NCBI RefSeq assembly: GCF_963664735.1
Contig: NZ_OY761553.1
Span: 2,557,303 to 2,621,302, forward strand
Direction: 5' to 3'
Source of the DNA: an uncultured Cohaesibacter sp.
GTDB lineage: Bacteria; Pseudomonadota; Alphaproteobacteria; Rhizobiales; Cohaesibacteraceae
DNA length: 64,000 nt
Below are positions 58,191 through 59,049 of the stretch, piece after piece; position 1 is the first letter of the stretch, and every line of letters begins with the position of its first letter. The position numbers were made by a program, and so were the translations under genes. Under the pieces are notes generated by a model. That model was not told the origin of the DNA. It did no database searches and was given only the letters and a program-made list of their open reading frames with translations.

Positions 58191-58244
58191 GATTCAATTT
58201 CGAGGGAGAGTCAAATCGGGTGACACAAAACGCCAGACAAACGA

Positions 58245-58276
58245 AAGCCCACCGGGGGAGGAGGACCGGTGGGCTT
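58245..58276 (-). ncRNA. Cuckoo/CcsR-like small RNA 3 (last hairpin, terminator-like)
   Basis: On the minus strand GCCCACCGG pairs with CCGGTGGGC and exposes the loop TCCTCCTCCC. It is followed by TTTCGTTTG, so it probably also ends the transcript. The loop is complementary to Shine-Dalgarno-type GGAGG. Third of three hairpins with the same loop. Confidence 0.7.
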
Positions 58277-58284
58277 CGTTGGAG

Positions 58285-58316
58285 GATCCAAAACTGGGAG
58301 GAGGTAGTTTTGGATC
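58285..58316 (-). ncRNA. Cuckoo/CcsR-like small RNA 2
   Basis: On the minus strand an 11-bp perfect stem, GATCCAAAACT / AGTTTTGGATC, presents the loop ACCTCCTCCC. The stem differs in sequence from its neighbours while the loop is the same, which is what duplication with conserved function of the loop would give. Confidence 0.7.
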
Positions 58317-58320
58317 AGAT

Positions 58321-58346
58321 CAGGCTTTGGGAGGAGGTAAAGCCTG
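58321..58346 (-). ncRNA. Cuckoo/CcsR-like small RNA 1
   Basis: On the minus strand an 8-bp stem, CAGGCTTT / AAAGCCTG, presents the loop ACCTCCTCCC. It is the first of three such hairpins after the DUF1127 gene. In Rhodobacter the homologous CcsR RNAs are cut by RNase E from a DUF1127-encoding precursor. Confidence 0.7.
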
Positions 58347-58363
58347 AATTCTTAGAAACTCGT

Positions 58364-58405
58364 GGCTTTCGCTTTGACGTGTTATCGTCAGCGAAAGGCT
58401 TTTTT
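58364..58405. terminator. Hairpin between the DUF1127 stop and the small RNAs
   Basis: GGCTTTCGCT and AGCGAAAGGC pair (one mismatch) with an inner GACG/CGTC stem. On the plus strand it is followed by TTTTTTATTT and could stop transcription arriving from the trxA side. On the minus strand it lies directly after the DUF1127 stop and could mark the processing or partial-termination point before the small RNAs. Confidence 0.55.
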
Positions 58406-58559
58406 ATTTAGTGATAGCAGCTTCGCGTGCAATGTCTGCGATGTCTGCCCGTGAGATACCCAGATCGCTAAGGTCACGGTTACTCAAACGGTTCAGTTCT
58501 TCAACAGTGTCACGGTAGTTGCGCCACTGACGGTAGTTCTTCACAACAGTATTCATCAT
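58404..58559 (-). CDS. DUF1127 domain-containing small protein
   Basis: A 51-residue basic protein. It begins MMNTVVKNYRQWRNYR and continues TVEELNRLSNRDLSDLGISR, with the L-x3-R/S-D-L-G-I-x-R core of DUF1127 (YjiS-like). AGGATG lies 8-12 bp before the first ATG; a second ATG is the next codon. In Rhodobacter the DUF1127 protein CcaF1 binds RNA and is co-transcribed with CcsR small RNAs that follow its stop codon, exactly as the three hairpins do here. DUF1127 proteins in Agrobacterium influence phosphate and carbon metabolism and RNA turnover. The arrangement, more than the sequence, indicates the same role. Confidence 0.88.
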   Translation of the reverse strand: MMNTVVKNYRQWRNYRDTVEELNRLSNRDLSDLGISRADIADIAREAAITK

Positions 58560-59049
58560 GTTCGTCATCCTTTGTTGCTATGTGGCATTTAAGGTTCAAC
58601 TGCTTTTTCAAAAGCGCTGCGGTTGTAACTCGTTTTAAAGTTCCTCATCGCTTTCTTGAATATGTATATAGATCATGGCTCAGAATTTTACACCCCCCAA
58701 GTTTGCATAGCTGTCTTGTTCATCATGCAAATCGAGAGCACCTCATTTTTTAGTCATGCGTTTTAAACATGCCTCTTATAAATTACGAAATTAGTTGTGA
58801 TTTTTCAATAACTTAATATTTTCATTCTATACAACTAACGGATTATGTACTTTCCACCAACGAGTTCAAAACGACTAACTAAAGATTTTATTAGCGCACT
58901 GCGCCCGTCGAACCGGTGCATATTTGCAGAAAAAGCCCCTGATTTTCGGTGATTTGCTAAGCGTGCAAAGGCGATTTTGAAATTTATATCGATATAATTC
59001 TTGGTCTCTTGGCGAAATGTCCGATGGTTTCCATCAGAAAACCGGGCCG
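58560..59049. other. Promoter region of the DUF1127-small RNA operon and AT-rich spacer
   Basis: About 490 bp without a supported gene. On the minus strand CTTGGG (58696-58701) and CCATGA (58673-58678) are separated by 17 bp, a partial match to the RpoH-type promoters that drive the homologous locus in Rhodobacter. The right half (58740-58850) is very AT-rich. Confidence 0.35.

What the first reader, a model, noticed from the sequence alone, without database searches (positions are those of the whole stretch)
58245..58559. DUF1127 gene followed by three CCTCCTCCC-loop small RNAs (cuckoo/CcsR-type locus)
On the minus strand a 51-codon DUF1127 gene is followed within 60-310 bp by three stem-loops. 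Their stems differ (8, 11 and 9-10 bp) but their loops are near identical, ACCTCCTCCC or TCCTCCTCCC, complementary to the Shine-Dalgarno sequence. In Rhodobacter sphaeroides the DUF1127 gene ccaF1 is co-transcribed with CcsR1-4, and the cuckoo RNA family is defined by this loop; those RNAs act in stress responses. Here there are three copies between trxA and folC, and the protein is short enough to be missed by gene finders. The identity is inferred from architecture; expression and targets are unknown.
Basis: partly seen in the sequence, partly recalled or inferred. Interest (0 to 1): 0.85.

Follow-up and report, generated by a model that had tools for sequence, protein, structure and literature searches.

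The report
DUF1127 gene with αr14 regulatory RNA
A tiny protein gene is followed by a known type of bacterial regulatory RNA whose three hairpins can block the ribosome sites of other messages; it is a new example of a known kind, and the two parts probably answer to one stress-linked switch protein.

Summary
Minus strand 58240-58352 is an above-threshold member of Rfam RF02344 (αr14, the NfeR1 family): 89.5 bits against 58.8. It fails the CcsR1 model RF02791: 36.8 against 65.3. The best reading is one RNA of about 113 nt with three anti-Shine-Dalgarno loops, not three RNAs. Its stems covary across the genus: 11 of 30 pairs change on both sides. A 51-aa DUF1127 gene (58404-58559) ends 51 nt before it. 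The genome holds three such loci. The association is already in print as the 'CIN1 locus'.

What I could add: a VtlR/LsrB-like LysR box. In 23 Rhizobiales loci with both parts it lies upstream of DUF1127 when the parts abut (17 of 17) and between them when they are 200 nt or more apart (6 of 6). A strict form of the box occurs three times in the window's genome, at the three DUF1127-αr14 loci. The window's own box is a weak match to the general motif (p 0.095). No expression data were available.

The parts
58704..58729 (-). VtlR/LsrB-like LysR box, TGCA-N18-TGCA (strict form TGCA-N12-CAGCYATGCA)
   Evidence: shared with both paralogs; 3 of 3 strict matches in the genome lie at DUF1127-αr14 loci; general motif p 0.095 here
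58666..58671 (-). -10-like CTATAT, picked by eye
   Evidence: identical in all 14 aligned orthologs, window included; not reported by the sigma-70 scan
58404..58559 (-). DUF1127 gene, 51 codons plus stop
   Evidence: PF06568 54.8 bits; start by paralog alignment
58366..58397 (-). hairpin between DUF1127 and the RNA, possible processing signal (inferred)
   Evidence: MFE -14.6 kcal/mol, z -4.0
58240..58352 (-). αr14 (NfeR1-family) RNA, full model
   Evidence: RF02344 89.5 bits, cut-off 58.8; covariation
58321..58346 (-). hairpin 1, loop CCTCCTCCC at 58329-58337
58285..58316 (-). hairpin 2, loop CCTCCTCCC at 58296-58304
58245..58276 (-). hairpin 3, loop CCTCCTCCC at 58256-58264; probably also the transcript end (inferred)
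   Evidence: the terminator scan did not report it, its loop is longer than the scan allows

Best explanation
A two-part operon under a stress-linked LysR activator. A VtlR/LsrB-type protein (in this genome probably the 296-aa LysR protein beside trxB) binds the box at 58704-58729 and starts one minus-strand transcript a few bases after 58666. It encodes the 51-aa DUF1127 protein and ends in one αr14 RNA of about 113 nt with three redundant anti-Shine-Dalgarno loops. The RNA, as part of the mRNA or cut from it, pairs with GGGAGGAG-like ribosome sites of other mRNAs and lowers their translation. The DUF1127 protein is made with it and may help processing (as CcaF1) or act on other proteins (as shown for PhoR). 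Shown here by sequence: RNA family, conserved structure, protein family, association, box and its placement. Inferred: transcription, one precursor, activator identity, processing, targets.
For: RF02344 89.5 bits. Covariation: 11 of 30 pairs, 0 of 500 shuffles for four of five measures. DUF1127 0-52 nt upstream in 35 of 37 genus copies over threshold. Motif learnt on 57 stand-alone Rhizobiales copies, then p<=0.05 in 22 of 23 unseen DUF1127-linked Rhizobiales loci against 2 of 15 loci outside alphaproteobacteria. Placement 17 of 17 and 6 of 6. Strict box: 32 of 36 genus matches lie upstream of αr14, reversed pattern 0. trxB, LysR, ar15-like order in this genome. NfeR1 is activated by LsrB and silences ntrB through these loops (PMC10746234, passages).
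Against: No transcript data. The window's box alone is not significant under the general motif (p 0.095), and only 19 of 35 genus loci reach 0.05. In 7 of 33 DUF1127-linked genus loci the best motif hit is not a CAGCYATGCA site. No sigma-70 match at the proposed -10. ntrB, the proven NfeR1 target, has GGAGAGG and at most four consecutive pairs here, judged by eye. The ar15 match is below its cut-off, 32.0 against 40.
Confidence: 0.72

Rival explanations
1. A CcsR-type locus: one stress-sigma-driven precursor cut by RNase E into three separate small RNAs, with the DUF1127 protein as helper.
For: Same gene order as ccaF1-CcsR, whose RNAs come from the 3' UTR by RNase E (PMC8625941, PMC10253847, passages). 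SmelA075, a three-hairpin RNA with the same loops, occurs in several processed forms (PMC3927594, section 2.7). A stable hairpin separates gene and RNA.
Against: CcsR1 model 36.8 bits, cut-off 65.3, while αr14 fits all three hairpins at once. A LysR-like box was found; I made no search for an RpoH-type promoter.
Confidence: 0.15
2. The RNA has a promoter of its own between DUF1127 and 58352, as S. meliloti NfeR1 does, and DUF1127 is only a neighbour.
For: Stand-alone copies are common: 60 of 83 Rhizobiales loci lack DUF1127 within 500 nt; where the gap is 200 nt or more the box sits before the RNA, 6 of 6.
Against: Only 51 nt separate them; no motif hit lies in between at any of 17 Rhizobiales loci with small gaps (best hit counted); DUF1127 is kept next to 35 of 37 genus copies.
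Confidence: 0.08
3. The hairpins are only 3' UTR and terminator structures that protect the DUF1127 mRNA and do not act in trans.
For: They directly follow the gene, and hairpin 3 looks like a transcript end.
Against: The loops stay CCUCCUCCC or close while the stems change with compensation; copies without DUF1127 exist; NfeR1 acts through such loops (PMC10746234, passages).
Confidence: 0.05

Closest known systems
αr14 / NfeR1 (Smr14C2), Rfam RF02344
   Same: Three hairpins with CCUCCUCCC loops; LysR-type box upstream; Rfam threshold passed
   Different: NfeR1 is described with its own promoter and LsrB/NtrC control (PMC10746234, passages); here DUF1127 precedes the RNA and the box precedes DUF1127; no strong ntrB complement
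CIN1 locus, ccaF1-CcsR1-4 of Rhodobacter sphaeroides, Rfam RF02791
   Same: DUF1127 gene followed by CCUCCUCCC-loop RNA
   Different: CcsR1 model not met; CcaF1 has 71 aa and an RpoHI/RpoHII promoter (PMC10253847, passages), here 51 aa and a LysR-like box
VtlR/LsrB-activated small DUF1127 genes (BAB1_0914, BAB2_0512, atu1667)
   Same: Short DUF1127 gene with a VtlR-like box (PMC7486931, PMC12595884, passages)
   Different: There described as protein genes, and PMC7486931 leaves open whether atu1667 acts as protein or RNA; the passages I read do not mention an αr14 RNA at them

Membership tests
αr14 (RF02344) | Covariance model at or above gathering score, full length | tested here: met
   89.5 bits, cut-off 58.8, model 1-123 of 123
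αr14 (RF02344) | Three hairpins with conserved anti-SD loops and variable stems | tested here: met
   11 of 30 pairs with two-sided change
αr14 / NfeR1 | LsrB-type T-N11-A box upstream | tested here: inconclusive
   TGCA-N18-TGCA kept in the genus; general motif p 0.095 at the window, 0.03 and 0.01 at its paralogs
αr14 / NfeR1 | Silencing of ntrB through the loops | tested here: inconclusive
   no strong complement at the ntrB starts of the genus, read by eye; no experiment
CcsR1 (RF02791) | Covariance model at or above gathering score | tested here: not met
   36.8 bits, cut-off 65.3
CIN1 locus (DUF1127 plus CcsR-like RNA) | Short DUF1127 gene directly followed by CCUCCUCCC-loop RNA | tested here: met
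   definition taken from a passage of PMC10253847, the 2015 source is not held
CIN1 / CcsR | Co-transcription and RNase E processing of the RNAs | not testable with these tools
   needs RNA data
cuckoo RNA family | Thermodynamic matcher of the 2015 paper | not tested
   paper not held
DUF1127 (PF06568) | Pfam gathering score | tested here: met
   54.8 bits, cut-off 23.3; no NCBIfam match for the 51-aa form
vtlR/lsrB locus elsewhere in this genome | LysR gene beside trxB, followed by AbcR-type RNA | tested here: inconclusive
   order trxB, LysR, ar15-like present; 59-66% identity to the trxB-adjacent LysR of five named Rhizobiales; ar15 below cut-off

The most novel reading that the evidence does not exclude
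Many short DUF1127 genes driven by VtlR/LsrB in Rhizobiales are dual genes, protein plus αr14 RNA from one transcript, and the same LysR box also governs the DUF1127-CCUCCUCCC loci of Rhodobacterales (best hit upstream of DUF1127 in 20 of 20 such loci, p<=0.05 in 17). One ancestral LysR, DUF1127 and anti-SD-RNA circuit would then underlie NfeR1, CcsR and the VtlR small proteins, and some DUF1127 phenotypes would belong to the RNA.
Probability: 0.4. Interest if true: 0.65.

Novelty: new member of a known kind. Interest (0 to 1): 0.42.

Why it matters
It links three lines of work that the passages I read keep apart: NfeR1/αr14 under LsrB, DUF1127 proteins under VtlR, and CcaF1-CcsR. PMC7486931 (passages) says it is unknown whether the VtlR target atu1667 acts as protein or RNA; loci of this type carry both. 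It also gives a simple prediction: where the LysR box sits tells whether DUF1127 and the RNA share a transcript.

Tried and rejected
Three separate RNAs as the default reading: set behind one αr14 RNA. Chance clustering: rejected. The anti-SD pattern alone as proof: 16 of the 120 pattern loci are not alphaproteobacterial, 0 of 16 has DUF1127 within 500 nt and the model R1 finds nothing in those 16 at E<=0.01. ntrB as a target: not supported.

Target scan: GGGAGGAG-N2-11-ATG has 18 sites in the own genome against 6 for the reversed pattern. Of the 18, 7 open a frame of 200 aa or more, among them crotonyl-CoA carboxylase/reductase and a divergent acyl-CoA mutase. The 8-mer is kept at 9 of 17 and 7 of 17 genus starts (the script chose the start with the best complement, which favours the count). 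Strong ribosome sites may be kept for their own sake, so this stays a lead.

Results against the class-wide reading. In Rhodobacterales the LysR homolog (45-48% identity, 5 of 5 genomes) has no trxB within 1.5 kb. In Agrobacterium pusense, 5 of 5 DUF1127 matches read, one αr14 was found, 346 nt downstream and with its own box. In Ensifer oleiphilus, 5 of 10 DUF1127 matches read, none has αr14 downstream within 800 nt apart from a weak 19.5-bit match in L200/L215 that I left out of the script, while two good copies lie upstream of the gene there. In Brucella cytisi, 5 of 7 matches read: the three with open frames of 51-52 codons have αr14, but L211 and L216, which may also be short, have a box and no αr14 by model R1. 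Of 44 DUF1127 matches in six genomes 30 were read.

Choices of mine: loci were sorted into Rhizobiales, Rhodobacterales and others by record titles; two unspecific titles (L015, L071) went to Rhodobacterales and one (L022) to Rhizobiales. Dropped rows: L146 and L176 (another genus) from the covariation count; L013, L085, L091 and L097 (short upstream) from the motif test; L143 and L144 from the genus motif test.

Full report
What is there. On the minus strand a DUF1127 gene (51 aa from 58559; PF06568 54.8 bits) is followed by three hairpins whose loops read ACCUCCUCCC, ACCUCCUCCC and UCCUCCUCCC. Rfam places 58240-58352 in RF02344, αr14, at 89.5 bits against 58.8, over the whole model. CcsR1, RF02791, reaches 36.8 bits against 65.3. 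The fold is -49.5 kcal/mol, z -9.5.

Is the structure selected? The 37 αr14 copies of the genus over the Rfam threshold (29 distinct rows) were aligned by sequence. Of 30 pairs, 11 change on both sides; 98.9% of cells are paired; 0 of 500 shuffles reach the observed value for four of five measures, 18 of 500 for the fifth (further pair types). Slid versions give at most one pair with a two-sided change. The structure came from one of the sequences, which favours the paired fraction. Two copies of another genus (L146, L176) were dropped after a first alignment, in which L144 had wrong coordinates.

Copies in the genome. The genome (4.94 Mb, one contig) has three copies over threshold, each after a DUF1127 gene, and one weak two-hairpin match, 31.4 bits, without one. 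PF06568 has four matches in the genome, three of them these. In the genus 35 of 37 copies over threshold have DUF1127 0-52 nt upstream; L163 and L164 do not. Both trxA and folC were found beside 13 of the fetched copies.

Wider survey. DUF1127 lies within 500 nt upstream in 23 of 83 Rhizobiales, 20 of 21 Rhodobacterales and 0 of 16 other loci. The association is thus common and not obligatory. It is in print as the CIN1 locus (PMC10253847, passages).

The upstream element. The three own loci share TGCA-N12-CAGCTATGCA before DUF1127. Published boxes, read as passages: TGCA-N6-GCAT for LsrB at NfeR1 (PMC10746234), GCAT-N3-TG-N3-T for Agrobacterium VtlR (PMC7486931), CAATGCAGCCATGCA for Brucella VtlR (PMC12595884). 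A motif learnt from scratch on 57 of 60 stand-alone Rhizobiales upstream regions came out as nGCATnGCTGCnnTGCA, which fits the Agrobacterium form. On loci it had not seen it gave p<=0.05 in 22 of 23 DUF1127-linked Rhizobiales, 18 of 21 Rhodobacterales, 19 of 35 genus loci and 2 of 15 others. The window gives p 0.095, its paralogs 0.03 and 0.01. Against the Brucella 15-mer the window site agrees at 12 of 15 positions, counted by eye.

Placement. With at most 110 nt between DUF1127 and the first loop the best hit lies upstream of DUF1127 in 17 of 17 Rhizobiales loci (16 with p<=0.05); with 200 nt or more it lies between DUF1127 and RNA in 6 of 6. In Rhodobacterales it lies upstream of DUF1127 in 20 of 20, p<=0.05 in 17, and 170-228 nt before the domain in 18 of 20. 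Shared promoters predict this. In the genus 33 of 33 tested DUF1127-linked copies have the best hit upstream, 17 with p<=0.05, but in seven it is not a CAGCYATGCA site.

Specificity. The strict box, a pattern I took from the own loci, has 36 matches in 18 genus genomes; 32 of 36 lie upstream of an αr14 copy, and the reversed pattern has none. In the window's genome 3 of 3 are the DUF1127-αr14 loci. Over 14 orthologs, window included, mean identity to the window is 85% in the box, 100% in CTATAT and 53% upstream of the box. The ar15-like RNA (32.0 bits, below its cut-off) also has TGCA-N18-TGCA before it. A looser pattern with TATA has six distinct sites in the genome, three of them at the window locus, at L002 and at ar15; it misses L003, and the reversed pattern has one. 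The order trxB, LysR, ar15 is the one described for vtlR and the AbcR RNAs (PMC7486931, passages).

Link to known VtlR targets. In Brucella cytisi the three DUF1127 genes with open frames of 51-52 codons (L197, L206, L221) are each followed by αr14 over threshold (82.2, 79.4, 60.0 bits) and each has a box upstream. Ochrobactrum L198 and L205, Phyllobacterium L199 and L207 and Labrenzia L202 and L208 are alike. Two further B. cytisi loci (L211, L216) and two Ochrobactrum loci (L210, L217) have a box but no αr14 by model R1 (Rfam was not run on them). That the three genes correspond to BAB1_0914 and the others is inference, not tested by a tree.

Mechanism. The best-supported model is a LysR activator, one transcript, DUF1127 protein plus αr14 RNA, the RNA blocking GGGAGGAG-like starts. 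Repression through the loops is carried over from NfeR1 (PMC10746234, passages). The protein's role is open: CcaF1 binds RNA and takes part in RNase E processing (PMC10253847, passages), while Agrobacterium DUF1127 proteins act on PhoR (PMC12501420, passages).

Novelty. A new member of a known kind. Seven paper searches listed no paper that I could see joining DUF1127, αr14/NfeR1 and LsrB/VtlR, in an open-licence library that lacks the 2015 cuckoo paper and the 2021 CcaF1 paper. The shared box and the placement rule may be new; that is not proved.

Noticed in passing
Rhodobacterales loci such as L063, L074, L094, L105, L115, 170-228 nt before the DUF1127 domain: A TGCATRGCAGCATTG-like box, close to the VtlR motif, at DUF1127-CCUCCUCCC loci of the CcsR kind; the known R. 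sphaeroides promoter is described as RpoHI/RpoHII.
   Followed up: partly
L190, L191 (own genome 3941048-3941416): Crotonyl-CoA carboxylase/reductase and a divergent acyl-CoA mutase both start after GGGAGGAG, an 8-base complement of the αr14 loops.
   Followed up: partly
L004 (own genome 933122-933220, +): Weak αr14-like match (31.4 bits) with two long hairpins and CCTCCTCCC loops, no DUF1127 upstream.
   Followed up: no
L245, L247, L248; L246: Strict box without αr14: in three genomes before similar ORFs starting MNQLS, in one genome before another ORF.
   Followed up: partly
L178 (G028), L177 (G025), L176 (G018): Expanded arrays: nine anti-SD-like loops after one DUF1127 in G028, and repeated DUF1127 and αr14-like units in G025 and G018.
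   Followed up: no
L163, L164: Two genus copies lack DUF1127 and have a box-like site about 80 nt before the RNA, as if the gene had been lost or gained between box and RNA.
   Followed up: no
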